The notes: a model not told the origin generated them from the letters alone. Positions 7,566 through 25,961 are shown, numbered from the stretch's first letter. The stretch: 64,000 bases of DNA from Deltaproteobacteria bacterium (GCA_005879605.1 VBKE01000005.1:7311-71310); one strand, 5' to 3'. Program-made: numbers and translations.

Positions 7566-7772
7566 CGACCTCACTAATTCGCTCTAGAGATATTAAAGAA
7601 GCGCGGCGCCGGTTACGGAAATCGGAAGCTTCCTCCGGAGCTTCTTCCGTCCTCGTTGCACTGAATGAAGCTTCCATCCTCATTGAAGAGCGCTCGATAA
7701 TCCCCAAAGATTTCCTAGGCCCGACGAAGCAGGCGTGTCCGCCGAGACTCTAGCTAGCTGCGGTCGGCGCGC

Positions 7773-7835
7773 GCCAAAGTCACCCGCATCAACGCCTTCC
7801 GTAGCGGGATAGACTTCGCACTGATCTACTCGTAA
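7773..7835 (+). pseudogene. Degenerate duplicate of the 3' end of rnr
   Basis: Read on the plus strand in frame from 7773, this stretch encodes AKVTRINAFRSGIDFALIYS and then TAA. It aligns with the C terminus of RNase R at about 6072-6145 (VKVVRVNAFRSEIDFELLAD and onward). The identical 14-mer tcaacgccttccgt is shared (6087-6100 and 7789-7802). About 14 of 20 residues match. No upstream RNase R coding sequence is present apart from a few weakly similar codons from about 7758, so it is a tail fragment. Its last bases overlap the stop codon of the convergent ABC permease gene. Confidence 0.75.
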
Positions 7836-9046
7836 CGCAACGCTTCGATAGGATCTAACTGCGCCGCCTTCTTAGCCGGGTAGAAACCGAAGAAGACGCC
7901 GACGGCCGCGGAGAAAAGAAAAGCAATAGCGACCACGATGGGACTCACGAGGGTCGGCCACTGGGCCCAAAACTTCAGCACCTCGGAGCTGCCGATGCCG
8001 AGCAAGATACCGATGGAGCCGCCGGTGGCCGCCATTACAACCGCTTCCACCAGAAATTGCAGCATGATGTCCCGGCTCCGCGCGCCAACGGCCATGCGGA
8101 TGCCGATCTCGCGCGTGCGCTCCGTGACCGAAACCAGCATGATATTCATGATCCCGATGCCACCTACCAGAAGCGAAATGGAAGCGACACTACCAAGGAG
8201 AACCGCCATGACCCGCGCGCTGGTGGAAGCCGCTTCAGCGATGTCCGAGAGATTACGAATCATGAAATCGTCCTCGCGGTCGGGACCGATGCGGTGCCGC
8301 TGGCGAAGCAAAGCCGTAATTTGCTCCTGGGCTTCCTGCACGCGTTCCGCGCTGACCGCCGAAACCACGATGCTCTGCACGTAAGTGATCCGCATGAGCC
8401 GTTTCTGCATGGTGGTGTAGGGCATTAGGATGGTATCGTCTTGGTCGGTGCCCTGGCTGGTTTGCCCCTTCGGCGCTAGCACTCCAACCACGCGAAACGG
8501 AATGTTTCTGATCCTTATGATGGCATCGAGGGGGTCATCGTTGCCGAAAAGTTGATTGACTACGGTCTGTCCAATGACCGCGACTTTTGCGGCGCTCTCC
8601 ATATCCCCTTCATGCAGGAAGCGGCCCTTTGTCACTTGCCACTCGCGAATCTGCTGAAACTCGGGTGCCACGCCTTGGGTCAGAGTCGACCAGTTCAGAT
8701 TTCCCGCCACGATCTGATCCGGGCGCCGTATGACGGGGGACGCAAAAGCCGCGGCTCGTATTTCTTGTGTCATCGCTTTGGCGTCGCTGTCCACTAGCGT
8801 ATTGACGCCCCCGCTCCCGGTACGCACACCCCCTTGAGTTGCGGTGCCCGGAAGCACGATCAATACGTTGGTGCCCAAGCTCGCGATCTGAGATCGGATG
8901 GTCGCCTTGGCGCCCTCGCCGATGGCAACCATGGCGATCACCGCGCCGACCCCGATAATAATTCCGAGCATCGTCAGAAATGAGCGGAGTTTATTCCGTC
9001 CGAGCGCGCGAAGCGCGATTCTAAAAGTCATGAACCACATGGCCAA
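7826..9046 (-). CDS. ABC transporter permease, MacB/FtsX type
   Basis: A 406-residue membrane subunit. There is one transmembrane helix near residues 25-48 (the FLTMLGIIIGVGAVIAMVAI region), a large extracytoplasmic MacB-type core domain (about 50-275) and three helices in a C-terminal FtsX domain (about 280-395). It ends with the characteristic DPIEALRYE. With the ATPase gene immediately upstream and a MacA-type adaptor before that, it forms a tripartite, mechanotransmission-type efflux or export system. The substrate is unknown. The ATPase and permease are separate genes here, unlike fused E. coli MacB. A repeat element fills the 76-bp gap to the ATPase gene. Confidence 0.92.
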   Translation of the reverse strand: MAMWFMTFRIALRALGRNKLRSFLTMLGIIIGVGAVIAMVAIGEGAKATIRSQIASLGTNVLIVLPGTATQGGVRTGSGGVNTLVDSDAKAMTQEIRAAAFASPVIRRPDQIVAGNLNWSTLTQGVAPEFQQIREWQVTKGRFLHEGDMESAAKVAVIGQTVVNQLFGNDDPLDAIIRIRNIPFRVVGVLAPKGQTSQGTDQDDTILMPYTTMQKRLMRITYVQSIVVSAVSAERVQEAQEQITALLRQRHRIGPDREDDFMIRNLSDIAEAASTSARVMAVLLGSVASISLLVGGIGIMNIMLVSVTERTREIGIRMAVGARSRDIMLQFLVEAVVMAATGGSIGILLGIGSSEVLKFWAQWPTLVSPIVVAIAFLFSAAVGVFFGFYPAKKAAQLDPIEALRYE

Positions 9047-14324: not shown

Positions 14325-15098
14325 CTAACGGTCGGAAAGAGAAGCCGCCTTGCCGCCTCGTCGCACCTTGATGACCTCGCCGAGAATCGACAGCGCGATC
14401 TCCGCCGGCGTTTCGGTCGCAATATCGAGACCGATGGGAGCATACACTCTTTCGATCATTTCCTCGGCGATCTTCTCTTCGTCGCGGAACCTTTGAAAAC
14501 AGGCCTTGATGCGCCGCCTGCTGCCGATCATGCCGATATATTTCGCCTGGCTGTGGATAATTTCGCGCAAGCACGGCTCATCGTACTTGTGTCCCCGCGT
14601 GATCAGCACGATATAGCAGGACGGAGTGATGGTCATCTCCTTCAACATCTGCGCCATATCGCCGACCAAGACTTCGTCCGCATCCGGGAAGCGCTCACGA
14701 TTGGCGTACAGTAAGCGGTCATCGATCACGGTCACGTGAAAATCTAAAACCTTGGCTATCTTCGCTAGCGGCACGGCGATATGCCCCGCGCCGACAACGA
14801 TCAGCTTGGGCGGGGCGGGCATCACTTCGAAAAAGATTTGCAGCCTACCCCCGGCATCGGGAATGTCGAGCGATACCAGTTTGGACTTTTCGTCTCGCAG
14901 ATGGGTGCCGCTTTCCTGGAGGATCGCTTGAACTACCCTGGCGTCACCCACGGTTTCCGCTGTTATCTTGCCGTCACGAATCAGGCACTTGGCACCGGGC
15001 TCTACGCGGTCGTTTCCCTCTACCTCGATCACGGTGGCGAGCACCGCGGCAGCTTCTTGCTCGCTGATCCGGACCAGTTCTTCAGACAGCGAACTCAT
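14325..15098 (-). CDS. XdhC-family protein with C-terminal Rossmann domain
   Basis: XdhC proteins help insert sulfurated molybdenum cofactor into xanthine-dehydrogenase-like enzymes. This 257-residue protein carries a degenerate N-terminal region and a well-conserved XdhC C-terminal Rossmann domain (about 95-240): LIVVGAGHIAVPLAKIA, VTVIDDR, VLITRGHKYDE and YIGMIGSRRRIK. It ends with the typical YAPIGLDIATETPAEIALSI. Its start overlaps the stop of the short XdhC-like gene by 4 nt. The two genes together correspond to one full-length XdhC/CoxI protein plus a partly duplicated N-terminal domain. Confidence 0.92.
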   Translation of the reverse strand: MSSLSEELVRISEQEAAAVLATVIEVEGNDRVEPGAKCLIRDGKITAETVGDARVVQAILQESGTHLRDEKSKLVSLDIPDAGGRLQIFFEVMPAPPKLIVVGAGHIAVPLAKIAKVLDFHVTVIDDRLLYANRERFPDADEVLVGDMAQMLKEMTITPSCYIVLITRGHKYDEPCLREIIHSQAKYIGMIGSRRRIKACFQRFRDEEKIAEEMIERVYAPIGLDIATETPAEIALSILGEVIKVRRGGKAASLSDR

Positions 15099-15490
15099 TT
15101 CGGGCTGGCCACCTCCTCATCGCGCTCTTTCCACCATGGATCGATGAAGACGTTCATGATACCGCCGCAAACCGCGGGGCTATCCGACGAGATGTCGTCT
15201 AAAAGGTCGACTCTGACCATTCGGGGTTTGCGCGTGCGAATCACTTCAATCGCTTCGCGTTTCACATCCGCCTCACCACAGCCGCCACCGATGGTCCCGA
15301 GGATTTCTCCCCACGCCGTCACTACCATTTTGGCGCCCACTTCCCGCGGCGTCGAACCCTTCGCCGACACGATGGTCGCCACCGCCAGAGTCTCACCCTT
15401 ATCGAGGAACTCCTTCACCTGATGATAGACGGAGTCTTTCTTCTTTGTCTCCGAACGGGCGTCATCAAAACATGTTCCTTGACCTGCCAT
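15095..15490 (-). CDS. Short XdhC/CoxI-family protein
   Basis: The start at 15490 is fixed by a GGAGGT ribosome binding site just upstream and gives 131 residues. The frame is open further up to 15742, but that part translates an intergenic repeat. The protein is a stand-alone XdhC/CoxI domain with GETLAVATIVSAKGSTPREV, LGTIGGGCGEADVKREAI and SDSPAVCGGIMNVFIDP. The conserved Cys residues in GGGCGEA and PAVCGG fit the family. It probably works with the adjacent Rossmann-containing XdhC in molybdenum-hydroxylase maturation. Confidence 0.9.
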   Translation of the reverse strand: MAGQGTCFDDARSETKKKDSVYHQVKEFLDKGETLAVATIVSAKGSTPREVGAKMVVTAWGEILGTIGGGCGEADVKREAIEVIRTRKPRMVRVDLLDDISSDSPAVCGGIMNVFIDPWWKERDEEVASPK

Positions 15491-15507
15491 TTTCTTACCT
15501 CCAAGTC

Positions 15508-15620
15508 TTAGTACGATGATCGAAAATCGATGATCGACGATGGCGATCTTGAATCCTCCATTCTTGATCTTCGGTATTTCGGATAGCGATCCTCCATCCT
15601 CGATTCTCTTATCCTCGAGT
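15508..15620. repeat. Intergenic word-like repeat, family C (GATCGA/CCTCCAT words)
   Basis: The 133-bp gap between the CoxE-like and XdhC-like genes is almost entirely made of short recurring words: gatgatcgaaaatcgatgat at one end, then cctccattcttgatcttcgg, gatcctccatcctcgattct and cttatcctcgagtctcttat. The arms are partly complementary. Part of it reads through in the frame of the short xdhC gene. Confidence 0.65.
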
Positions 15621-15623
15621 CTC

Positions 15624-16835
15624 TTATGCCACCATTTTCTGCAGCGTGCGCCCCAACGCAATGAGGCTGTCGACGTTATGCACGGAAAGAAAAAGATCCA
15701 GATAAGGGAGCGCGGCCTGCATTCCCTTGCACAGCGGCTCATAGTTCTCGCTGGCCAAAAGCGGATTCAGCCAGATGATCTTTTTACAGCGGCGTTTTAA
15801 GCCCTGCATCTCCCGCTCCAGCAAACTGACGTCGCCGCGATCCCAACCGTCACTGATGATGACGACAACCGTTCGATGTGTGACCATGCTGGGCGCAAAG
15901 TTGCGATTGAAGGCATGAAGCGACCGGCCGATGTTCGTACCGCCCGACCAGCCTAGAATGCTGGCGGAAATTTTTTCCAAAGCATTGGTGATATCCTTGG
16001 TGCGGATCAAGTGGGTAATGCGGCTGAGCGACGTGCTGAAGACGAAGGTCTCTACGCCCCACAGCTCGTTCTGAAGCCCGTACATGAATTGGATCAAGAA
16101 GCGGCTGTAACAATCCATGGAACCGCTGACATCGCAGAGCAGGACCACTTTGGTTTTCTTGATTCGTCGCTTGCGGTTCACCAGGTCGATAATCTCGCCG
16201 CCGTATTTCATGTTGTTGCGCATGGTCCAGCGCGGATCGACGGCGTTGCCTTTGCGCGCGCGTTTCTTGCGCCGGCTGATCTGCGTCGCGATCTTGGTGG
16301 CGATCAGCAAGATCGCCCGCGCGATCGCGCGGCTCTCCTCGACGCCCATCTCGCTGAAGTCCTTATGATTGAGCAGCTCCTGCGGGCTGTAGGTTGGAAT
16401 CGAAAACTCCTCCAGATCTTCCAATGGGACGTCGTTATTAGCCATCGTCTCCGCGATCGCTTCTTCCAAGCCCTCTTCGTCTCCCCCCTCTTGCGCTCTC
16501 GATTCCGTCGGCGTCCCTTCGATTTCAAGGCTCTCCATCGGCACCCGCTCGTAGACTTGCTCGCGCCAGAAGCAGTCGAAGACCATGTCGAAAATCGGGA
16601 AATCTTCCTTCTGGGAAATCAAATTGGAGCGTAGCAGAGCGCGAAAGTCAGACTTGCGGGCGACGTCGACGAACTCTACCGACCGCGAAGCATCGATCAC
16701 TTGGCTCAAGCTGACCTTCACGCCAAGCTGTTTCAACGCGCGCGCGAAGGCCATCAAATTAGGCAGCGTCCCGTGACCCCGCACCGAGGAAAAGCGGTGG
16801 ACGGCAGCCGCAATGGCTTCAGGGGTGACTTCCAT
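15624..16835 (-). CDS. VWA-domain protein, CoxE-like
   Basis: A 403-residue protein of the CoxE family, which works with a MoxR-type AAA+ ATPase in maturation of Mo-containing CO dehydrogenase and related hydroxylases. The N-terminal half is helical with an acidic stretch (about 125-150). The C-terminal half (about 215-400) is a von Willebrand A domain whose metal-ion site begins DVSGSMDCYSRF. The gene lies 10 bp after moxR in the transcription direction and upstream of the two xdhC genes, matching the usual maturation gene order. Confidence 0.9.
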   Translation of the reverse strand: MEVTPEAIAAAVHRFSSVRGHGTLPNLMAFARALKQLGVKVSLSQVIDASRSVEFVDVARKSDFRALLRSNLISQKEDFPIFDMVFDCFWREQVYERVPMESLEIEGTPTESRAQEGGDEEGLEEAIAETMANNDVPLEDLEEFSIPTYSPQELLNHKDFSEMGVEESRAIARAILLIATKIATQISRRKKRARKGNAVDPRWTMRNNMKYGGEIIDLVNRKRRIKKTKVVLLCDVSGSMDCYSRFLIQFMYGLQNELWGVETFVFSTSLSRITHLIRTKDITNALEKISASILGWSGGTNIGRSLHAFNRNFAPSMVTHRTVVVIISDGWDRGDVSLLEREMQGLKRRCKKIIWLNPLLASENYEPLCKGMQAALPYLDLFLSVHNVDSLIALGRTLQKMVA

Positions 16836-16845
16836 TGGTTTCTCG

Positions 16846-17766
16846 CTAGCTCACCAATTCGGGCGACACTCTCAGCAAAGCCTCCAGATTCAGTTGTCTC
16901 CCTTCGATCTGTTCGCGCAAGTGGTGCAGATCTTCCCGATACTTAAACACGCATCCCATTGTCTCCACGACGGTCTTGTCGTCCAACCCCTTTCGGTTGA
17001 GAGCGATGAGAGCAGACGCCCAATCCAAAGTTTCGGCTACTCCGGGTCGTTTGTAAAAATTCATCTCGCGCACCCGCTGCATAAAAGCGCAGATTTGTCG
17101 GGCCATCGTCGCCTCGACCTCCGGGAACTTGGTGGTGATAATTTCATATTCCTTTTCAAAGCTCGGGTATTCGATCCAATGGTACAAACAGCGGCGCTTG
17201 AGCGCATCGTGAATCTCGCGCGTGCGATTGGAAGTGAGAAAAACGTACGGGCGATGTTTCGCCGCGACCGTGCCGATTTCGGGAATCGTGATTTGAAAAT
17301 CCGACAAAACCTCCAACAAAAACGCCTCGAACTCCATGTCCGCTCGATCGATTTCGTCGATCAACAGCACCGGCGGGTTGGCGCCGTCGCTTTGGATTGC
17401 CTCCAGCAAAGGCCGCTTGATCAAATACTCCTGGCTGAAGATCTCAGTCTCGACCGCCTCTTTATCGCCATGCTCGACCTCTTCGAGCTTGATCCGCAGC
17501 ATCTGCTTCGGATAGTTCCATTCGTAGAGGGCGGTGTTCGCATCCAGCCCTTCGTAGCACTGCAAACGGATCAGTTTCGCGCCGAGAACTTTGGCCAGGA
17601 CCTTGGCGACCTCCGTCTTGCCGACCCCCGCCTCTCCTTCCAGAAGCACCGGCTTGCCCATGAGCAGGGAAAGATAGACGATCGTCGCCAATGACCGATC
17701 GCAGATGTATCGCTCCTCCCTCAGGACTTCCTGGACTCTTTCAATAGTAAGCTCTTTCGGATTCAC
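16846..17766 (-). CDS. MoxR-family AAA+ ATPase (CoxD-like)
   Basis: A 306-residue AAA+ ATPase with Walker A GEAGVGKTEVAK (about 42-53), Walker B PVLLIDEIDRAD (about 130), sensor 1 FLTSNRTREI and an arginine-finger region DALKRRCLYHWIEYP. MoxR ATPases pair with VWA proteins as metal-enzyme maturation chaperones; CoxD with CoxE is the best-known case. The adjacent CoxE-like gene supports that pairing. The C-terminal lid domain is intact. It follows the YqeB-like gene by 37 bp on the same strand. Confidence 0.93.
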   Translation of the reverse strand: MNPKELTIERVQEVLREERYICDRSLATIVYLSLLMGKPVLLEGEAGVGKTEVAKVLAKVLGAKLIRLQCYEGLDANTALYEWNYPKQMLRIKLEEVEHGDKEAVETEIFSQEYLIKRPLLEAIQSDGANPPVLLIDEIDRADMEFEAFLLEVLSDFQITIPEIGTVAAKHRPYVFLTSNRTREIHDALKRRCLYHWIEYPSFEKEYEIITTKFPEVEATMARQICAFMQRVREMNFYKRPGVAETLDWASALIALNRKGLDDKTVVETMGCVFKYREDLHHLREQIEGRQLNLEALLRVSPELVS

Positions 17767-17803
17767 TTTCGCCTCACCATCCGAGATATTAAATAACGCG
17801 CTT

Positions 17804-18613
17804 TCACGCGGCAGGAACTTTTAGATTCTCGAAAGCATGGAGAATGGCCTCCAGAACGCCGCCGGCGATGGCTCTTGACTTGTCGGAAATCGCGTAACAG
17901 TACTCCCTTTCTCCACGGGGATCAATGTCGCCCGCCTTGATGCCCTGGGGCACTTCGATGCCGTCTTTTAGCATGCCACGAACGAGTCCGTGGATCCCCG
18001 CCTTGATCGGAACTTCCTTCACTTCGGCAATCGTATCACCCGCGTTGACCGAGTCCCCAATATTGCGCAATGCCGTGAAACGTCCTGCGCAGGGTACCCT
18101 GAACACGCGGGCATTCGTGAAACCTGTCACGCTTGATGGAATTCCGGTATCGGTCTCTGCCTCCCCGTTCCATATCACTCGGCCCAGGTGATAACCGCGA
18201 TTGCTTTCCACCACTGCATGGACGTTCACCCCCGCCACAAAACCGGGCCCGACGCCGATGACAAGCGGCGCGTCGGAAATCGTGGTACCGGTATTTTTTT
18301 TAGCCATAATCGCATCCACGACAACAGCAGGCATGATCTTTTCTCGGATCCAAGCGTCAGAATCCACCAGCAGCGGAATGTTCCGGCCTGCCCATTGCGC
18401 CCGGGCTTCCTCCGCATTGCTCACGCTAACCGCTTTCACGCCTTCAACAGTCTGATATCCTTGGTAAACCGCTTCGGCAAAAGCAACGGTCCGCCGCACC
18501 GCCGTCGGATGTTCGATCTCGGTGATCAGCACGTCCATGTGGCATTGATGCAGTCGATGGGCGATTCCACTCGCCATCTCGCCGCCGCCGCGAATCAGCA
18601 CTTTTAGACCCAT
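17804..18613 (-). CDS. yqeB: YqeB/EF2563-type molybdenum-hydroxylase system protein
   Basis: From the ATG at 18613 the protein has 269 residues. It starts with LKVLIRGGGEMASGIAHRLH, a nucleotide-binding-type opening seen in the EF2563/YqeB family. The family co-occurs with selenium-dependent molybdenum hydroxylases and XdhC. Later conserved pieces include PLVIGVGPGFVAGVNVHAVV, ESNRGYHLGRVIW and the IKAGDIDPRGEREYC segment. It heads the moxR/coxE/xdhC run. The biochemical role in the family is not settled. A selenium requirement here is only inferred from family context. The frame upstream of 18613 has no supporting start. Confidence 0.85.
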   Translation of the reverse strand: MGLKVLIRGGGEMASGIAHRLHQCHMDVLITEIEHPTAVRRTVAFAEAVYQGYQTVEGVKAVSVSNAEEARAQWAGRNIPLLVDSDAWIREKIMPAVVVDAIMAKKNTGTTISDAPLVIGVGPGFVAGVNVHAVVESNRGYHLGRVIWNGEAETDTGIPSSVTGFTNARVFRVPCAGRFTALRNIGDSVNAGDTIAEVKEVPIKAGIHGLVRGMLKDGIEVPQGIKAGDIDPRGEREYCYAISDKSRAIAGGVLEAILHAFENLKVPAA

Positions 18614-18931
18614 ATGACTCGGTATTATGAATAGCATAGCAGACAGGAGAGCGTTATTAAAACTTGGCAACAAACCCTTACGCGAGACGCAGTCAACTAC
18701 GATTCAGCGTCCGGAGAGTGTTAGCGCCATCAAATCTGACGTTCGGACAGCCGCGTGCAATTTAGATACGATGCAGCCGTCAGAAGTTATCAGCAGAAGA
18801 TCAGTTGTGATACTAAAAGCAAGAACTGGGCTGCGGCGGCACTTCGATTAGTCGCATTTGTCCGGGATTTCCGTAATGACCAACCTGCTACGCGTTGACT
18901 CACTTATAGCTTCCGTTTGTTCTACGTAAGC
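18614..18931. other. 318-bp intergenic region, no gene recognised
   Basis: This gap separates the molybdenum-hydroxylase block from the secreted protein after the T2SS operon. It is AT-richer than its neighbours. No tRNA, repeat family or credible small gene is visible. The promoter for the yqeB-moxR-coxE-xdhC-ribK-ubiX-fni run should lie in its left part, but no clear consensus pair can be named. Confidence 0.5.
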
Positions 18932-19348
18932 TCAGGAATCGCATTGTACGATTGATATCGAAAAATCGGCGGTTGTGGCAGTACCCTTTGCAACTACAAC
19001 AGCCGCTATAGTATCGCCGCTTTCTAACGAGATCCAGTTGCCGTCAAACAGCGACCCACCCACAACCCTGTTTATCGTGACGCCGCTAAGTTGGAATTCG
19101 ATAGTCGCGCTGCCGGAAGAAAAATAGGTCCGGCTAAAACTTACCGCTGAATGACCCACTGGCACTGTGTAGGAGAGTTTTGTTCCAGTTGTTGTAACAC
19201 TTACATTATTTGCTAAGGCGTTTATCCTTTTCCCGACCCCGGGGGAAGAACAGTCTTGTGCAGAAGCGATCCCAGAGCCTATATACGTAAAGAGAGCCAG
19301 GAGCAAAATCGAGAAGAAAAAGTGTTTCATATGTGCATTGATAATCAT
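18932..19348 (-). CDS. Secreted protein of unknown function
   Basis: A 138-residue protein. The ATG at 19348 has a strong AAAGGAGGAGAG ribosome binding site; an inner ATG at 19330 would give a more standard signal peptide start. The signal peptide (KHFFFSILLLALFTYIGSGI) is followed by an ASAQ cleavage region. The mature part of about 105 residues is rich in Ser, Thr, Val and Gly, probably all-beta, with one Cys at each end (DCSSPG and VQCDS) that could form a disulfide closing the domain. No family is recognised. It lies directly after the T2SS operon on the same strand, so it might be a T2SS substrate, but that is guesswork. Confidence 0.6.
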   Translation of the reverse strand: MIINAHMKHFFFSILLLALFTYIGSGIASAQDCSSPGVGKRINALANNVSVTTTGTKLSYTVPVGHSAVSFSRTYFSSGSATIEFQLSGVTINRVVGGSLFDGNWISLESGDTIAAVVVAKGTATTADFSISIVQCDS

Positions 19349-19453: not shown

Positions 19454-21232
19454 CTATCGCGTTATAACATAAGCTGCTGCCAATTTTTCTGACATCTTGA
19501 GCGTTTTTTGCAGCTTTGAAGCATCGGCAAGGTTTGCCGACTGCCCTACACGAACGCGGTGCCAGGCCTTTCCATTAACGTCGGCGGTTACAACATAGGC
19601 ATCATAACCCTTCGCGCCCAGCACCTTGGCAAGCGCCTCGGCGTCTTGCTTTCGCTCCATAGAGGCGACTTGAACCGTCCATTGTTGAGCCGATTTCAGG
19701 TCCTCCTTTGCGCTAGCCGGTTTCGACATCGCAGAAGCCGAAGTTTTCTCTGGATGACGTGTAACCGATAGCGCATAAGCGTGCTGGGGGGCGACCTGTG
19801 GCACTTCCGCCGGCTGGGAATTTTCAACCTGTACTGAAAGAGTACTACCAGCCGGCGCCGGGGTTAGCACTTGCAAACCGGCGGCTGACGGAAGACCTTT
19901 TACTGCGTCGTTTGGAGACGTCTTTGACGATACGTTGATTTTTCTTACCGGCGCGGCCGACGCCCCGGGTCCGGCGGGCGCCGCGCTTGGCGCCGGTGCT
20001 GGTGGCGGGTTGGGCGCCGGCGCCACATCGCCAGAAGGCCCAGGCAGCGTCGGTTTTTGCTCTAATAATGGCCTTTGTTGTAACTTCTCTCGTTCTCTTG
20101 CCATTCGGTCAAGCTCGTTCCGCACGGTCGAAAGCGATTTCTTAAAATCCTCAGTGATTTGTTCGGCTTGATCTCGACTGCGAATCACGTGCGGCGTAAT
20201 CAGCATGATTAGTTCCGTGCGATCCAGTGTGTCAGCCGTTGACCCAAAGAACCGCCCGATCCATGGAAGGTCCATTAGATATGGAATTCCCGTACGAGAA
20301 CGAGATCTGTTATCCGCAATGATTCCGCCAATCGCAAGGGTGTCTCCGTCCTGGACCACAGCCGTGGTCTCTGCCTGCCGTGTGTCGAAAGCGGGGAAAG
20401 AATCCGTTCCTACCAGGACATTCGCCCCACGTTGGCTTACTTCAGCCAGAATCTGGAGATTCACCAGTCCTTGTGAATTAACCTGTGGGATGATGGTTAC
20501 GATCCTTCCCGTGTTACGGTACTGGATAGTTGTACTGGAAGATGGACTCGCAGCACCCACGACAGCAACGAGCTGACCTGTCGGTATCGGCTCCTCGCTA
20601 CCAACCTGGATTCGGGCGGGGCGATTGTCGGTGGCCAGTACGCTCGGAGAAGAGAGGATTTTGACGCGCGAATCCGTTGCTAACGCATTGATAAAGGCCC
20701 GAACAGCATTACTCCGGCCTATTATACCACTGATGCCGTTTCCAAAAGGCGTTATGGTCGCCATCCCCGGTAGTGCTGGCAATATGCCACTTCGCACCGC
20801 GCCGCCAGAACCGAACGTTTGTCCAAAAATCGAGGTATTGCCTTTAAATATTTCATACTCGATGCCGAAATTTTCAGAGTTCTTGAGTGTCACCTCCGCA
20901 ACGAGCACGTCTAACAGGACCTGGCGAGGGACTATATCCAAATCTTTGAGAATGTTTTTAACATTCTGAAACTCCTGAGCGGTGCCGTAGACAATCAAAG
21001 AATTGGTCGCCGGGTCTGCCACGATTCGCAGTTGTTCTTCTGGCTTCGCCGCTTGGGGTGCGCCGGTTGGCGGCCGGGGAGCCCCGGGCGGTTGAGGCGT
21101 AACAGGGGCCGGCGTGGGAACCGGCACTGGTGCTTGACCGGGCGCCGCTGCGGCTCTAGCGTAGTGTTTCTCAGTGATCAAACCAGAGGCAAACAAGAAG
21201 ACAAAAGTCGTAATCTGGAATGCACGCATCAT
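19454..21232 (-). CDS. gspD: T2SS secretin GspD, C-terminal half: N3 part 2, barrel and SPOR domain
   Basis: The second of two proteins that together make one GspD. The start ATG at 21232 follows an AAGGTGAG site and gives 592 residues. Order: signal peptide (about 1-28), Pro-rich linker, second half of the N3/NolW domain (LRIVADPATNSLIVYGT onward, about 65-120), the secretin barrel (about 125-360) with IPYLMDLPWIGRFFG and TELIMLITPHVI, a coiled segment, a Pro/Ala-rich linker and a C-terminal SPOR domain (about 520-590, QWTVQVASMERKQDAEALAK). SPOR domains bind denuded septal peptidoglycan. Canonical GspD instead ends in an S-domain for a pilotin. The split and the SPOR tail are both unusual. 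Confidence 0.88.
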   Translation of the reverse strand: MMRAFQITTFVFLFASGLITEKHYARAAAAPGQAPVPVPTPAPVTPQPPGAPRPPTGAPQAAKPEEQLRIVADPATNSLIVYGTAQEFQNVKNILKDLDIVPRQVLLDVLVAEVTLKNSENFGIEYEIFKGNTSIFGQTFGSGGAVRSGILPALPGMATITPFGNGISGIIGRSNAVRAFINALATDSRVKILSSPSVLATDNRPARIQVGSEEPIPTGQLVAVVGAASPSSSTTIQYRNTGRIVTIIPQVNSQGLVNLQILAEVSQRGANVLVGTDSFPAFDTRQAETTAVVQDGDTLAIGGIIADNRSRSRTGIPYLMDLPWIGRFFGSTADTLDRTELIMLITPHVIRSRDQAEQITEDFKKSLSTVRNELDRMAREREKLQQRPLLEQKPTLPGPSGDVAPAPNPPPAPAPSAAPAGPGASAAPVRKINVSSKTSPNDAVKGLPSAAGLQVLTPAPAGSTLSVQVENSQPAEVPQVAPQHAYALSVTRHPEKTSASAMSKPASAKEDLKSAQQWTVQVASMERKQDAEALAKVLGAKGYDAYVVTADVNGKAWHRVRVGQSANLADASKLQKTLKMSEKLAAAYVITR

Positions 21233-21345
21233 TTTCTCACCTTTGATTCTAGACAACCAATTTTAGCCTTGAGAATTACGTTCTCTGCTTTTCTAGGAAT
21301 TGACTCGCTGGCGTAAAACACCGCCTGCCGTCCGGTCCTGGAATT

Positions 21346-22656
21346 TCAATAGGGGGGATAGCTCCTTGAAGAAGTCGGTGGACCCCCCATTTGACCTCCA
21401 AACTGAGGACCTCCAAACTGACTTCCAGGCTGGCCTGTCCCCGAGCCTGTTCCCGAGGTGGTGGTGGAACGGTGCAGATTCTGCAACGTCTGGGTTGAAC
21501 TTCTAGTTGCCGTCGCTGGCTGGCCGAGAGCCTGGTTCAATACATTTGCCAGATCCTCCGCTTTGCCGTTCTCTACCGGATAGATAAAAATCCGCCGACC
21601 GGGTCCTTCCGTGATAACGTCGATCCGATCCAGCCAGCGTTTGGCGTAAGTCCAAGCCGCCTCGCTATGGCTGATAACCAATAGCTGATTGATTCTTGGG
21701 AGCGCGATGAATTCAGCGGTAAAGCTATCCGGTTGGGGCGCCGACGAGGCAAAGGACTGCATCACTTTCGTCATTTCCTGCGCTAGATCCTCGGCGCTGG
21801 CGATTTTGGGCTGATAGATTTCCATTCGCGTGCCGGCAAAAACCTGGACGTCGATGAGATCTGCTATCTCCATGAGGCGCTGAATGTTTGAAGGCAGATC
21901 CATGATGATGAGAAAATTTCCCCGCGGGTTCTCGATGATTTCACCGCCGGGCTGGAGAAACGGCGTAAGGACTCTTTTCATTTCCGCCACCGAAAAAAAA
22001 CGCACCGGCACGATTTGGAGCGCAAAGCTGTCCTCCTTGTCCTGTCCCATGGGACGTGCCAGACCCTTGCCCTCTTTGATCGGCATGATGTGATAGAGAT
22101 TCCCGGTCCTCACGGCAACGGCGCCGTTCATACGCAGTACCTGGTGAAAAATCGGCAGCAGATCTTCCGTCCTCAATGGTTCCGCGCTGTTAATTGTCAC
22201 CGTGCCCTTCACTTCGGGATCGATGGTGTAAGTGAGCCGCAGATGTTGGGCGATGATGTGAATGATCTCGACGAGATCAGCTCGATTAAAATTAAGCGAG
22301 ACCATTCCCCCGGAAGGAGCGGCGGGTGGGGGCAGCAGCCTGCGTTCCGGTGCAGCTTGCGGCGCTGGCACCTGACCGGCCGGCGGAACGGGTGTTCCCG
22401 GTTGCGGCGCACCCTGGGGAGTGGGGCCGGGTGCGGGTTGCTGCGTCGGCACAGAACCAGCCTCCGGCGTGCTCTGAGGTTGTGCTTGAGGTGTCGTTTG
22501 TGGAGGTGCTGGAGCGCGCGGTGCCGGTGGTTGCTGGCCTTGTGCCGGAGCCTCTTGGGATTGCGGCGCGCCCGTATTTTGCGCGAACAGAGATGGTGTC
22601 CTATCCGCGGCCAACAGCGCGATTACGAAAATGGTGCATCGATTCCGTAGCATCAT
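21346..22656 (-). CDS. gspD: T2SS secretin GspD, N-terminal half: N0-N1-N2 and N3 part 1
   Basis: 436 residues with its own signal peptide (about 1-25, ending SLFAQ) and a long Pro/Gln/Ala-rich linker. Then come N0 (about 113-185, SLNFNRADLVEIIHIIAQHL), N1 (about 195-260), N2 (about 270-345) and the first strand and helix of N3 (RIFIYPVENGKAEDLANVLN). The protein ends in a Gly/Ser/Gln low-complexity tail where GspD normally has the flexible N3 loop. The second half of N3 and the barrel are in the next gene, 113 bp downstream (start 21232). The start overlaps the gspC stop (ATGATG). N0 would contact GspC and pseudopilins in the periplasm. Confidence 0.88.
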   Translation of the reverse strand: MMLRNRCTIFVIALLAADRTPSLFAQNTGAPQSQEAPAQGQQPPAPRAPAPPQTTPQAQPQSTPEAGSVPTQQPAPGPTPQGAPQPGTPVPPAGQVPAPQAAPERRLLPPPAAPSGGMVSLNFNRADLVEIIHIIAQHLRLTYTIDPEVKGTVTINSAEPLRTEDLLPIFHQVLRMNGAVAVRTGNLYHIMPIKEGKGLARPMGQDKEDSFALQIVPVRFFSVAEMKRVLTPFLQPGGEIIENPRGNFLIIMDLPSNIQRLMEIADLIDVQVFAGTRMEIYQPKIASAEDLAQEMTKVMQSFASSAPQPDSFTAEFIALPRINQLLVISHSEAAWTYAKRWLDRIDVITEGPGRRIFIYPVENGKAEDLANVLNQALGQPATATRSSTQTLQNLHRSTTTSGTGSGTGQPGSQFGGPQFGGQMGGPPTSSRSYPPY

Positions 22657-23384
22657 TCCTCCGATTCGGACTGGTTCCGTTGCGGAACCGGTATCCTTTC
22701 CCGGCGCGGCAAATTTGGTACGACCCGTGGGGATACCGGTGTCGTCGGACCAACCTGCGCGGGTGCGGGAATTGGATTAACTCCCTGTCCCGGGGTCCCC
22801 ACTTGTCCTGGTATCGGCCCTGGAACTGGATTTGGCTGAACCCTCCTCGCTTGGCCTGGAACGGGTACCTTCGGAGCGGGTGTCTCGCCTTTTCGAAAAT
22901 AGTCCAACAAGACTTCCACGCGCGACGCTCCTTTCGTGAAAACAACTTGCTTCTCACCGATATCGCTCAACCTGAATCCCTCGACGTCATCGCCCAATTT
23001 TAGCCTCATCACGTTCGGTGGTTGTTGGCCTGGAACAACCTGCCCTGGGACCCCCGGGCCTTGATCACGCAAAACAGCATAGCGATTATTTCCCAGAATC
23101 GCGGTACCTAGGAGAACCATGCCACGAATTCTCTGAAAGGCCTTGGAGTTAGTCTCGGCTTCCCGGTTCCTTCCTTCGCCACGTTCAGGGTCGAAAAGAT
23201 TTTTGCTGATGATGATTTCAGTCCCCGCTAACGGAGGCTTTTTGTCTTCCAGTTTCTCTTCGCCCATCAGCGGCGAAACCTTAGCCTTTGCGCGAGTAGG
23301 CAGATCCCAGGGGCCGTTTTTCCAGAACCAATAAATCTCGGTTCCAACAAATCCTATGGCGACTAGAAGTACGGCGCCAAACAA
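22653..23384 (-). CDS. gspC: T2SS inner-membrane protein GspC
   Basis: GspC links the inner-membrane platform to the secretin N0 domain. The protein has an N-terminal membrane helix, then a HR-type domain (about 60-165: SKNLFDP, GMVLLGTAI, NNRYAVLRDQ, VEGFRLSDIGEKQVVF). It ends in a long Pro/Gly/Gln-rich tail in place of a PDZ domain. The start given is the TTG at 23384, which has no ribosome binding site and cuts into the membrane segment. An ATT at 23402, six codons upstream in frame, has GGAGGG at ideal spacing and would add MLTRSS. No ATG, GTG or TTG lies between it and the upstream stop. A 370-bp gap with a repeat separates it from gspM. Confidence 0.82.
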   Translation of the reverse strand: MFGAVLLVAIGFVGTEIYWFWKNGPWDLPTRAKAKVSPLMGEEKLEDKKPPLAGTEIIISKNLFDPERGEGRNREAETNSKAFQRIRGMVLLGTAILGNNRYAVLRDQGPGVPGQVVPGQQPPNVMRLKLGDDVEGFRLSDIGEKQVVFTKGASRVEVLLDYFRKGETPAPKVPVPGQARRVQPNPVPGPIPGQVGTPGQGVNPIPAPAQVGPTTPVSPRVVPNLPRRERIPVPQRNQSESEE

Positions 23385-23772: not shown

Positions 23773-24447
23773 CTACTCTTCGGTCTGTCTTTGGCCGCTA
23801 CCTCTCGCCTCGTCACCTGGATTTCCGCTCTTGGCGATTGGCGCCGGCTGAGTGCGGGCATAGCCGGCCACGGTGATGCTCACTCGAAGATTTTGCGCGG
23901 CCGTTTGGGGCACGCCCTGAGGTTGCGGAAAGCCGATGGGCCTGAAGAGCGATCGTACGTTGATCTCGTCGACGACGAGGAGTTTCGGAGAGGTTTCGAT
24001 TCCTCGAACGAGACTCGCGATCTGCTCGATTTGCCCGCCGATCTCCATCTGAATAGCAATTTTCGAAAACGATCCCGCAGGTTCCGGATTCAATACCCGT
24101 GTCGTAATGACTTGAGTCCCCTCTCGGGTCGCTAATCCCTGAACGGTGTCTTGCAGATCCGATGCGCTTACAGAAAGGGTATCGCCCGTCAGCAGTTTCG
24201 GTTCACGGGCCTTGATCTCGTTTTGCGTCGATTCTAAGGCGGTTGCCAGCGCTTCCTTCTGGGCTAGATAGCGAAGGTTTTTTTCCAGCAGCTGTGGCTG
24301 GCTGTCAAGTTGACTCTTGATCCACTCCCGTCGTTCGAGGAACGGGGCAACCACGATGTATTGGCCCAAAATCAGAAAGAGAATAACCAGCGTCAAAACC
24401 ACCAGTCCCCGCTCTCTGCGGGAGAGTCGCTGCCAAAAAAGCTTCAT
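23773..24447 (-). CDS. gspM: T2SS protein GspM
   Basis: A 224-residue inner-membrane protein of the T2SS platform. It has a short cytoplasmic start, one transmembrane helix (about 15-35, LVVLTLVILFLILGQYIVVA), a periplasmic coiled coil (about 40-90) and a ferredoxin-like domain (about 95-195), followed by a polar tail. The start overlaps the gspL stop by 4 nt, as expected for partners: GspM stabilises GspL. The downstream spacer before gspC is unusually long for this operon. Confidence 0.87.
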   Translation of the reverse strand: MKLFWQRLSRRERGLVVLTLVILFLILGQYIVVAPFLERREWIKSQLDSQPQLLEKNLRYLAQKEALATALESTQNEIKAREPKLLTGDTLSVSASDLQDTVQGLATREGTQVITTRVLNPEPAGSFSKIAIQMEIGGQIEQIASLVRGIETSPKLLVVDEINVRSLFRPIGFPQPQGVPQTAAQNLRVSITVAGYARTQPAPIAKSGNPGDEARGSGQRQTEE

Positions 24448-25961
24448 GGTTGTTTGGTTGGCGTCGCTTTGGGTTTTTCCAAATCGGCTTTCAGCGAGAA
24501 GGTTTCGCGATTGTCGCGGCCGCGATTGGACGGCGCATTGAAGTTGACGTTCTCGAACACGGGGGACCGCTCCAGGAGGGGAATCAAAGCAGAGGCGTTC
24601 TCGGCGTTTCCCTGAATCTCCAATACCCCTGCACGATAGCGCAGATTCGACAGATAGGCGTTCGTTGGGACGATTCTCGACAGTTCGTCAAGAACCCGAA
24701 GCACCTCGCCCCGGCGCCGACCGAGATCCGAGAGAAAGGTGGCTTCTTTTCGCGCTTTTTGCAGTTGCGTCTCTTCGCGGCGCAGGACCCCGACCGATGG
24801 CTCGAGTTTTTGATTTTCATTTTGCAGCTGCCGCAATCGTAACTCGTCCTTGATCGGATAGCTCACCCCCCAACCGATCAATCCGACAAACAGCAATCCT
24901 ACAAGCACGGCATTGACAATCGAGAGCGCCTTGCCGCGACTATGATCAGCCCCCTCATGCCGCAGGAAATTAGTCGTAAAGTAAGCCTCCCGCACGCCTC
25001 GGAGGGCCACTCCGATGGCCGGCAAAACGTTCGCATCAACGATCGGGTCGCTGCCCTTAAGCCGTTCGTTCCCAATTGCCAAGAGGTCTTGATATTCTAG
25101 GAATTTGCCGTTCACGGATCGAAACGACTCTCCCAATTCTCCCCAGTTATAATGTGTCGACGGCTGGCTGAGGCGTTCATAGAGCAATTCTCTGCCAGTG
25201 CCTTGAGCCCAGTCGGACGCGGGGAACCAGTGGGAGTAAAGCAAGTTGTGGCTTGGCTTCCATCCGTTGACGTTGGATTGGAGTCCAATCATCTCCCAGG
25301 TCTGATCATGGCTGCCAACGACGGTGGCGGTCTCCGAAACTTCTCCCTTACAGAACAGGAAATAATTGGCGAGCGCGGTAACGGTCGTCTCCACGCCGCT
25401 GGGCTTGATTCCAAAAGAACCCAGCAGATCGATCAAACCGGTGAGACTTTTCTTCGGAATGGCGAACAGATAGAGAGCTATCTTGTCGCCCTTCTTGCCG
25501 ATGGGAAGGTAATCGTAATAGATATCTTCGCGCCGAAACGGCAGTTGGCGCTCGATCTCGTATTCAAGCACCTGCTGTAAATTCGCCTCGGCTGCCTGAG
25601 GGAAAAAGAGCTGCTGGACGACGGCCTGTTCTTGGGGCACGCATATGAATACCGGGTCCCTGCCGGCCCTGAAGTGGGGCAAGAGTGAAAGAATCGCTTG
25701 GCGTATGGCGCGTTCATGGGAATCATTTTCGGCCTTCAAAGCAATTTCTCTCACGTCCTCGGCGATCCAGCCCGTCAGCTCGGAGATGGCCTGCTGATTC
25801 TCGCCCAACGGCAACTCCTCCGTTTGTTGCTCCAGCAACGAAACGTTGAGAACGTTTTTGCGCATACGCACGAAAACTAAGCGATCGCGCGTCACGTAAA
25901 GACCGACGCTTCTCAGGAAATCGGCACGTGAGAAATCTTTTAACCACTTTGGAGCCATCAT
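24444..25961 (-). CDS. gspL: T2SS protein GspL (PilM-like plus PilN-like)
   Basis: 505 residues. The N-terminal half (about 15-330) is a PilM/actin-like cytoplasmic domain with VGLYVTRDRLVFVRM and the QQVLEYEIERQLPF segment. It recruits the GspE ATPase. One membrane helix (about 345-367, IVNAVLVGLLFVGLIGWGV) is followed by a periplasmic coiled coil and a PilN/ferredoxin-like domain (about 425-490, LDELSRIVPTNAYLSNLRYR). Fusion of PilM- and PilN-like parts in one chain is the GspL architecture. It overlaps gspM by 4 nt and follows gspK by a 68-bp spacer holding a small hairpin. Confidence 0.9.
   Translation of the reverse strand: MMAPKWLKDFSRADFLRSVGLYVTRDRLVFVRMRKNVLNVSLLEQQTEELPLGENQQAISELTGWIAEDVREIALKAENDSHERAIRQAILSLLPHFRAGRDPVFICVPQEQAVVQQLFFPQAAEANLQQVLEYEIERQLPFRREDIYYDYLPIGKKGDKIALYLFAIPKKSLTGLIDLLGSFGIKPSGVETTVTALANYFLFCKGEVSETATVVGSHDQTWEMIGLQSNVNGWKPSHNLLYSHWFPASDWAQGTGRELLYERLSQPSTHYNWGELGESFRSVNGKFLEYQDLLAIGNERLKGSDPIVDANVLPAIGVALRGVREAYFTTNFLRHEGADHSRGKALSIVNAVLVGLLFVGLIGWGVSYPIKDELRLRQLQNENQKLEPSVGVLRREETQLQKARKEATFLSDLGRRRGEVLRVLDELSRIVPTNAYLSNLRYRAGVLEIQGNAENASALIPLLERSPVFENVNFNAPSNRGRDNRETFSLKADLEKPKATPTKQP

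What the first reader, a model, noticed from the sequence alone, without database searches (positions are those of the whole stretch)
19454..22656. GspD secretin split into two exported proteins, cut inside the N3 domain, with a SPOR domain on the barrel half
Seen in sequence: the first gene encodes signal peptide, Pro-rich linker, N0, N1, N2 and only the first strand-helix of N3, ending in a Gly/Ser/Gln tail. The second has its own ribosome binding site and signal peptide, a Pro-rich linker, the second half of N3 (LRIVADPATNSLIVYGT), the barrel and a SPOR domain. The break falls where N3 normally has its flexible loop. Family knowledge: GspD is one chain, and its C-terminal S-domain binds a pilotin. 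Inference: N3 would have to be completed between two polypeptides, and SPOR may anchor the barrel to peptidoglycan at division sites in place of a pilotin.
Basis: partly seen in the sequence, partly recalled or inferred. Interest (0 to 1): 0.82.

Follow-up and report, generated by a model that had tools for sequence, protein, structure and literature searches.

The report
Two-chain type II secretion pore protein
In one branch of the uncultured bacterial group Binatota, the gene for the outer-membrane pore of the type II protein secretion machine has been cut in two inside a folded domain, and each half has its own export signal, so the pore must be put together from two polypeptides instead of one.

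Summary
The only T2SS secretin found in this Binatota (class Binatia) genome is encoded by two adjacent genes: 22656-21346(-) holds N0-N1-N2 and the first strand-helix of N3; 21232-19454(-) holds a new signal peptide, the rest of N3, the barrel and a SPOR domain. The products cover positions 1-287 and 301-600 of the GspD profile. It is neither assembly error nor decay: the same split occurs in four more genomes of two other genera. All split genomes form one RNA-polymerase clade, which fits a single fission. Both halves are under purifying selection, and both N3 halves are as conserved as in unsplit relatives. In unsplit relatives the site is a 79-105-residue disordered linker inside N3; a stop, a start and a signal peptide were added within it. 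In three relatives stop and start overlap as ATGA, which suggests translational coupling. The SPOR domain is older than the split and present in unsplit relatives, so the two features should be kept apart. Most likely N3 is completed in trans (inferred, not shown). I found no report of a bacterial T2SS secretin split this way; nearest precedents are rhizobial RhcC1/RhcC2 (a chimera) and mitochondrial GspD/GspDN.

The parts
21346..22656 (-). gspD-N gene: N chain of the secretin (436 aa; signal peptide, Pro-rich stretch, N0, N1, N2, first strand-helix of N3, Gly/Ser/Gln tail)
   Evidence: PF21305 and PF03958; TIGR02517 positions 1-287
22087..22296 (-). N0 domain (residues 121-190 of the N chain)
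   Evidence: PF21305, 6.8e-17
21517..21600 (-). N3a: first strand and helix of N3 (GRRIFIYPVENGKAEDLANVLNQALGQP)
   Evidence: alignment with unsplit relatives and with PDB GspD chains; strand-helix in the model of unsplit G001
21349..21516 (-). Gly/Ser/Gln tail of the N chain = upstream end of the ancestral intra-N3 linker
   Evidence: alignment with linkers of unsplit relatives
21233..21345 (-). intergenic gap (113 nt) with a Shine-Dalgarno-like GGTGAG at 21236-21241; no terminator-like site
   Evidence: sequence; scan
19454..21232 (-). gspD-C gene: C chain of the secretin (592 aa; signal peptide, Pro-rich linker, rest of N3, barrel, helix, disordered linker, SPOR)
   Evidence: PF00263, PF03958 (part), PF05036; TIGR02517 positions 301-600
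21143..21232 (-). second signal peptide (about residues 1-30 of the C chain), absent from unsplit relatives
   Evidence: hydropathy and alignment; no signal-peptide predictor was available
20933..21037 (-). N3b: strand, strand and helix of N3 (EQLRIVADPATNSLIVYGTAQEFQNVKNILKDL)
   Evidence: PF03958 profile 27-69; strands 69-73 and 78-82, helix 85-98 in the model
20180..20686 (-). secretin barrel domain
   Evidence: PF00263, 8.6e-44
20063..20176 (-). long helix after the barrel (residues 353-390 of the C chain)
   Evidence: model
19466..19687 (-). SPOR domain
   Evidence: PF05036, 1.6e-14; pLDDT about 90 and RlpA SPOR as fold match
22653..23384 (-). gene upstream of gspD-N, in the place of gspC by operon position (no Pfam match); overlaps gspD-N by 4 nt
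   Evidence: ORF list and Pfam

Best explanation
A genuine gene fission of gspD in one Binatia clade. A stop, a start and a new signal peptide arose inside the long disordered linker that already interrupted the N3 domain of single-chain ancestors. The two products are exported separately by Sec and assemble in the periplasm into one T2SS secretin. The N chain supplies N0-N1-N2 and the first strand-helix of N3. The C chain supplies the remaining strand-strand-helix of N3, the barrel and a pre-existing SPOR domain. N3 is completed between two chains and is the clasp that joins the periplasmic rings to the barrel. The SPOR domain probably tethers the barrel chain to peptidoglycan, independently of the split. 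Shown by sequence: the fission, its conservation in a clade, constraint on both halves, and that SPOR is older than the split. Inferred: export of both chains, completion of N3 in trans, similar supply of both chains by coupled translation in the relatives, and SPOR binding.
For: Complementary profile matches; split in five genomes of three genera, uninterrupted in ten others; ATGA overlap in three and a 2-nt gap in one; one clade on the rpoB+rpoC tree, 94/92, one change; dN/dS 0.03-0.08 where measurable, and N3a and N3b as conserved in split as in unsplit genomes; the tail and the post-signal linker align with the two ends of the ancestral linker; the model of an unsplit relative places the linker between strand-helix and strand-strand-helix of N3; no other GspD found in the genome; same operon position in G023.
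Against: No direct evidence that the two chains meet: no co-fold, no biochemistry. Models have moderate confidence (mean pLDDT about 60). All genomes are MAGs; only the window and G023 have both genes complete on one contig, and two of the split relatives (G006, G020) have frame breaks in the barrel gene. The GspD tree alone does not recover the split forms as one clade. Export is judged from hydropathy only.
Confidence: 0.74

Rival explanations
1. Two-protein secretin without completion of N3: the barrel chain forms the pore with a partial N3, and the N chain is a separate adaptor that bridges the inner-membrane platform to the pore in another way, as has been suggested for rhizobial RhcC1.
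For: N0-N2 of XcpQ assembles on its own (PMC5646246); RhcC1 has been proposed as a linker between SctD and RhcC2 (PMC3459982).
Against: N3a is kept at the end of the N chain and is as conserved as in unsplit relatives, identity 0.85 against 0.80; with no role in N3 it should drift.
Confidence: 0.17
2. Two independent fissions, one in the window's genus (113-nt gap, own ribosome binding site) and one in the ancestor of g7 and g10 (ATGA overlap or 2-nt gap). This is a variant of the main explanation about history, not mechanism; its confidence is not exclusive of the others.
For: Different junction architecture; the GspD tree leaves the window's sequence among unsplit ones, with two changes of state.
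Against: The RNA-polymerase tree gives one clade and one change; GspD data do not reject one clade, p-AU 0.46; the second signal peptides resemble each other in a chain.
Confidence: 0.2
3. Decaying pseudogene: gspD is broken and the T2SS is being lost.
For: Frame breaks in the barrel gene of G006 and G020; some relatives in g10 gave no GspD match.
Against: dN/dS 0.03-0.08 on the N chain in all split pairs, 0.08 on the C chain in the one pair that can be measured; new signal peptide and overlapping start in several genera; the rest of the operon is present.
Confidence: 0.03
4. Sequencing or assembly artefact in the window.
For: MAG in 581 contigs.
Against: The same site is split, with different junction sequences, in four other genomes.
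Confidence: 0.01

Closest known systems
Canonical T2SS secretin GspD (PulD, XcpQ, ExeD, E. coli/Vibrio GspD)
   Same: Same domains in the same order (N0-N1-N2-N3-barrel), same place in a T2SS operon, full cover of the GspD profile.
   Different: Two genes and two signal peptides; cut inside N3; C-terminal SPOR domain; 79-105-residue linker inside N3 in unsplit relatives, against roughly 20-25 residues in E. coli/Vibrio by alignment.
Rhizobial T3SS secretin RhcC1/RhcC2 (and HrcIIC1/HrcIIC2 of P. syringae T3SS-2)
   Same: A secretin encoded by two genes, one with N-domains and one with the barrel.
   Different: T3SS; the genes are not adjacent; RhcC2 derives from a Tad secretin, so it is a replacement chimera and not fission of one gene (PMC3459982); no half-domain shared between the chains is described.
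Mitochondrial T2SS of some protists: GspD with GspDN1-GspDN3
   Same: A T2SS-derived secretin in several polypeptides, some of which correspond to halves of an N domain (PMC8134430).
   Different: Eukaryotic; N0 absent; the GspD part lacks N3 and part of the C domain; pieces cannot be assigned to particular N domains; not adjacent bacterial genes.
Legionella LspD, a secretin with a SPOR domain
   Same: A T2SS secretin carrying a SPOR-type peptidoglycan-binding domain (PMC9239104, PMC6617341).
   Different: In LspD the SPOR domain is at the N-terminus before N0 and the protein is one chain; here it is at the C-terminus of the barrel chain (and of the whole protein in unsplit Binatia).

Membership tests
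T2SS secretin GspD | N0-N1-N2-N3-barrel covering the GspD profile | tested here: met
   TIGR02517 1-287 and 301-600 on the two chains together; neither chain alone reaches the model's cut-off of 351 bits
T2SS secretin GspD | Single polypeptide | tested here: not met
   Two genes, different frames, 113-nt gap. It is therefore filed as a new variant, not a canonical GspD
T2SS secretin GspD | Lies in a T2SS operon | tested here: met
   Pfam matches for GspK, GspL/PilN and GspM next to it, with GspG-, GspF- and GspE-like ORFs beyond
T2SS secretin GspD | Oligomeric outer-membrane channel (about 15 subunits) | not testable with these tools
   needs biochemistry or cryo-EM
Pilotin-dependent secretin | Cognate pilotin of PulS/OutS or AspS type in the genome | tested here: not met
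   No match to PF09691 or PF16549 at E <= 1; other pilotin types were not searched
Rhizobial-type two-gene secretin (RhcC1/RhcC2) | Barrel chain derived from a Tad secretin | tested here: not met
   The C chain matches GspD (3e-75) far better than other secretin models and is 44-67% identical to the corresponding part of single-chain GspD of related genera
SPOR-domain protein | SPOR fold | tested here: met
   PF05036 1.6e-14; RlpA SPOR 6i09, rmsd 2.3 over 74 columns
SPOR-domain protein | Binds denuded peptidoglycan at division sites | not testable with these tools
   inference from the family only

The most novel reading that the evidence does not exclude
Splitting frees the periplasmic N0-N2 rings from the barrel, so that the two modules can take different symmetry or stoichiometry, or be joined and released at a split N3 clasp: a two-part secretin assembled, opened or repaired by exchange of its periplasmic half, with the barrel separately held on peptidoglycan by SPOR.
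Probability: 0.15. Interest if true: 0.82.

Novelty: new variant of a known kind. Interest (0 to 1): 0.63.

Why it matters
Secretins are treated as single chains, and how far the periplasmic rings and the barrel are independent modules is an open question (XcpQ N0-N2 forms a hexamer of dimers on its own, while the barrel has about 15 subunits; PMC5646246). A natural secretin made of two separately exported chains, cut inside the domain that joins the modules, makes that directly testable. It is also a clear example of gene fission in which a disordered insert inside a domain came first and a second signal peptide made the new piece viable.

Tried and rejected
(1) Assembly error or decay: rejected by independent genomes and dN/dS. 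(2) SPOR as part of the split: rejected, SPOR is in unsplit relatives and older. (3) Other apparent half-length GspD hits in class and phylum: those opened (G075, G079, G084, G361, G285, G257, G316) are cut at contig ends or, in G361, one chain with a missing middle. (4) Origin of the second signal peptide as a copy of the first: protein similarity in G006 (score 50, 0 of 1000 shuffles) but not in G013 or G023, and no DNA similarity in G006 (p 0.36); left open. (5) First scan of genome contigs with the C chain found nothing; a scan with an N-chain alignment gave organism names. (6) Two-chain co-fold: no tool for complexes, so an unsplit relative was modelled instead. (8) A first RNA-polymerase tree used a wrong-frame ORF for G004 and was redone.

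Full report
WHAT IS THERE. On the - strand, 22656-21346 encodes 436 aa and 21232-19454 encodes 592 aa. The first protein has N0 (PF21305) and Secretin_N repeats; the second has the C-terminal part of a Secretin_N domain (profile positions 27-69), the barrel (PF00263, 8.6e-44) and SPOR (PF05036, 1.6e-14). The GspD model TIGR02517 (600 positions) is matched at 1-287 by the first and 301-600 by the second. The genes are 113 nt apart, in different frames; a Shine-Dalgarno-like GGTGAG precedes two tandem ATGs. They are the last two genes of a T2SS operon in the order E-F-G-H-I-J-K-L-M-C-D-N-D-C; K, L and M are named by Pfam, the others by my reading of the ORFs. No other GspD was found in the 6.6-Mb genome: a search with the N chain returns only itself, and of the three other secretin matches one looks PilQ-like, one Tad-like and one is a short protein with a partial barrel match.

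WHOSE IT IS. Relatives returned with names are Binatota ('Candidatus Binatia', or deposited as Deltaproteobacteria MAGs); assigning the window to Binatota is an inference from these. The window's family holds 25 genomes in 13 genera.

CONSERVATION. Five genomes have the split: the window (genus g1), G006 and G013 (g7), G020 and G023 (g10). G024 (g10) begins at a contig end inside the barrel gene. Ten genomes (G001, G003, G004, G005, G007, G010, G011, G016, G017, G022) have one uninterrupted frame across the site, and so has G019 apart from a frame break further upstream. In three split genomes (G006, G020, G023) the stop of the first gene and the start of the second overlap as ATGA; in G013 they are 2 nt apart. 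Such overlaps commonly mean coupled translation (general knowledge), which would supply the halves in similar amounts. Gene order and the downstream neighbours match those of G023 by ORF order and size.

ONE EVENT, AND THE SPOR DOMAIN IS OLDER. A tree of rpoB+rpoC (2750 columns) puts the split genomes in one clade (ultrafast bootstrap 94, SH-aLRT 92), with one change of the split state and one of SPOR, deeper in the tree; joining the window's genome with unsplit G001 is disfavoured (p-AU 0.02). The shorter GspD alignment does not resolve this, but does not reject one clade of split forms (p-AU 0.46). SPOR domains are present in unsplit G001, G004, G010, G011 and G017, and absent from G005, G007 and G016. 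The window's contig itself carries rpoB and rpoC, so a contaminating contig does not explain the placement.

HOW THE CUT WAS MADE. In unsplit relatives of the family the two N3 halves are separated by a 79-105-residue Pro/Gly/Ser linker (64 and 87 in two genomes of another family), disordered in the model of G001 (residues 262-362) between a strand-helix (235-240, 246-257) and a strand-strand-helix (368-372, 377-382, 384-398). By alignment, E. coli/Vibrio GspD have only about 20-25 residues there. Unsplit G011 reads ...GPYPQQSQPFGGAFATVPVPGQ...; split G006 reads ...QGPYQ(stop)/MKTRAITLFFFLLALSGLVSAQFQAYGGAYAAVPVPGQ.... The N-chain tail and the linker after the second signal peptide are therefore the two ends of the ancestral linker, with a start and a signal peptide between them. 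The linker of unsplit relatives has no comparable hydrophobic stretch (peak hydropathy 0.3-1.5, against 2.2-3.0 in the five second signal peptides). Whether the new signal peptide was copied from the first is open.

CONSTRAINT. dN/dS is 0.03-0.08 on the N chain for all split pairs and 0.08 on the C chain for the only pair where dS could be estimated (G006-G013, dS about 2.5, so rough). Mean pairwise identity of N3a is 0.85 among split and 0.80 among unsplit SPOR-bearing genomes; of N3b 0.81 and 0.82; of the rest of the C chain 0.65 and 0.64. If N3 were no longer formed, N3a, a short end piece, should have drifted. This is the main argument for completion of N3 in trans, and it is indirect.

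MODELS. The window's C chain (mean pLDDT 60.5) shows N3b, barrel, a long helix 353-390, about 120 disordered residues and a confident SPOR domain 518-591, which matches RlpA SPOR (6i09, TM 0.77 over the target); the barrel part matches PulD, ExeD and GspD. The unsplit relative matches GspD structures by Foldseek (E down to 3e-26, but with poor global superposition, TM about 0.2-0.3, so domain arrangement is not to be read from it).

MECHANISM. Most likely both chains are exported by Sec, the C chain multimerises and reaches the outer membrane, and the N chain docks by adding its N3a strand-helix to the N3b sheet, rebuilding the N3 ring and hanging N0-N1-N2 below it, where N0 meets GspC. In XcpQ, N0-N2 assembles on its own and N3 belongs structurally to the C domain (PMC5646246), which makes a two-part secretin plausible; the cut here leaves a piece of N3 on the N chain, which would serve as the clasp. 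SPOR would hold the barrel chain on peptidoglycan, with or without the split. No PulS/OutS or AspS pilotin was found, which fits but does not show a pilotin-free route.

COMPARISON. Searches of open-access papers found no bacterial GspD divided in two; the library lacks most subscription papers. Rhizobial RhcC1/RhcC2 is a two-gene secretin of mixed origin. Mitochondrial T2SS has GspD and GspDN1-3, including half N-domains. Legionella LspD has an N-terminal SPOR domain and was described in 2022 as the only T2SS secretin known with one. In a sample of 395 genomes of the phylum, the listed N-chain matches lie mostly in long single frames; the short interior-looking ones that I opened were contig-end cuts or, in one case, one chain with a missing middle. 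The list was truncated, so rare further cases could be missed.

LIMITS. The relatives are MAGs. Only the window and G023 show both genes complete on one contig; G006 has a frame break and missing residues in the barrel gene, G020 has its SPOR part out of frame and its N gene cut by the contig end, and G013's N gene is on two contigs joined here by their overlap. Signal peptides were judged by hydropathy and charge, not by a dedicated predictor.

Noticed in passing
window 18932-19348 (-): A 138-aa ORF with a signal-peptide-like start and no Pfam match lies directly downstream of the split gspD; function unknown, could be T2SS-related or a substrate.
   Followed up: no
window 24444-25961 (-): The gspL-position gene encodes one 505-aa protein with a strong PilN match at its C-terminus and weak GspL/PilM matches before it, as if GspL and PilN-like parts were one chain.
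   Followed up: no
window 14325-18673 (-): Downstream of the T2SS operon lies a run that looks like molybdenum-enzyme maturation genes (XdhC/CoxI-like, CoxE-like, MoxR-type AAA, YqeB-like); the same run follows the T2SS in G023 by ORF order and size.
   Followed up: partly
L064 (G006) 1078-2737 and L068 (G020) 798-2607: The barrel gene is out of frame in two split relatives: G006 lacks about 35 residues with a frame change in the barrel, G020 has SPOR in another frame. Assembly error or decay cannot be told apart.
   Followed up: partly
L069 (G019), about 7600-8500: The single-chain gspD of G019 has a frame break in the N1/N2 region.
   Followed up: no
L162 and L172: Binatia-like gspD genes sit on contigs labelled 'Syntrophobacter sp. 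SbD2' (L162) and 'Acidobacteria bacterium' (L172): labels or bins are doubtful.
   Followed up: no
G009, G015, G021, G002, G012, G024: Several genomes of the family gave no match to the N chain, including G009 and G015 (98-99% complete), close to the split clade: the T2SS may be patchily lost.
   Followed up: no
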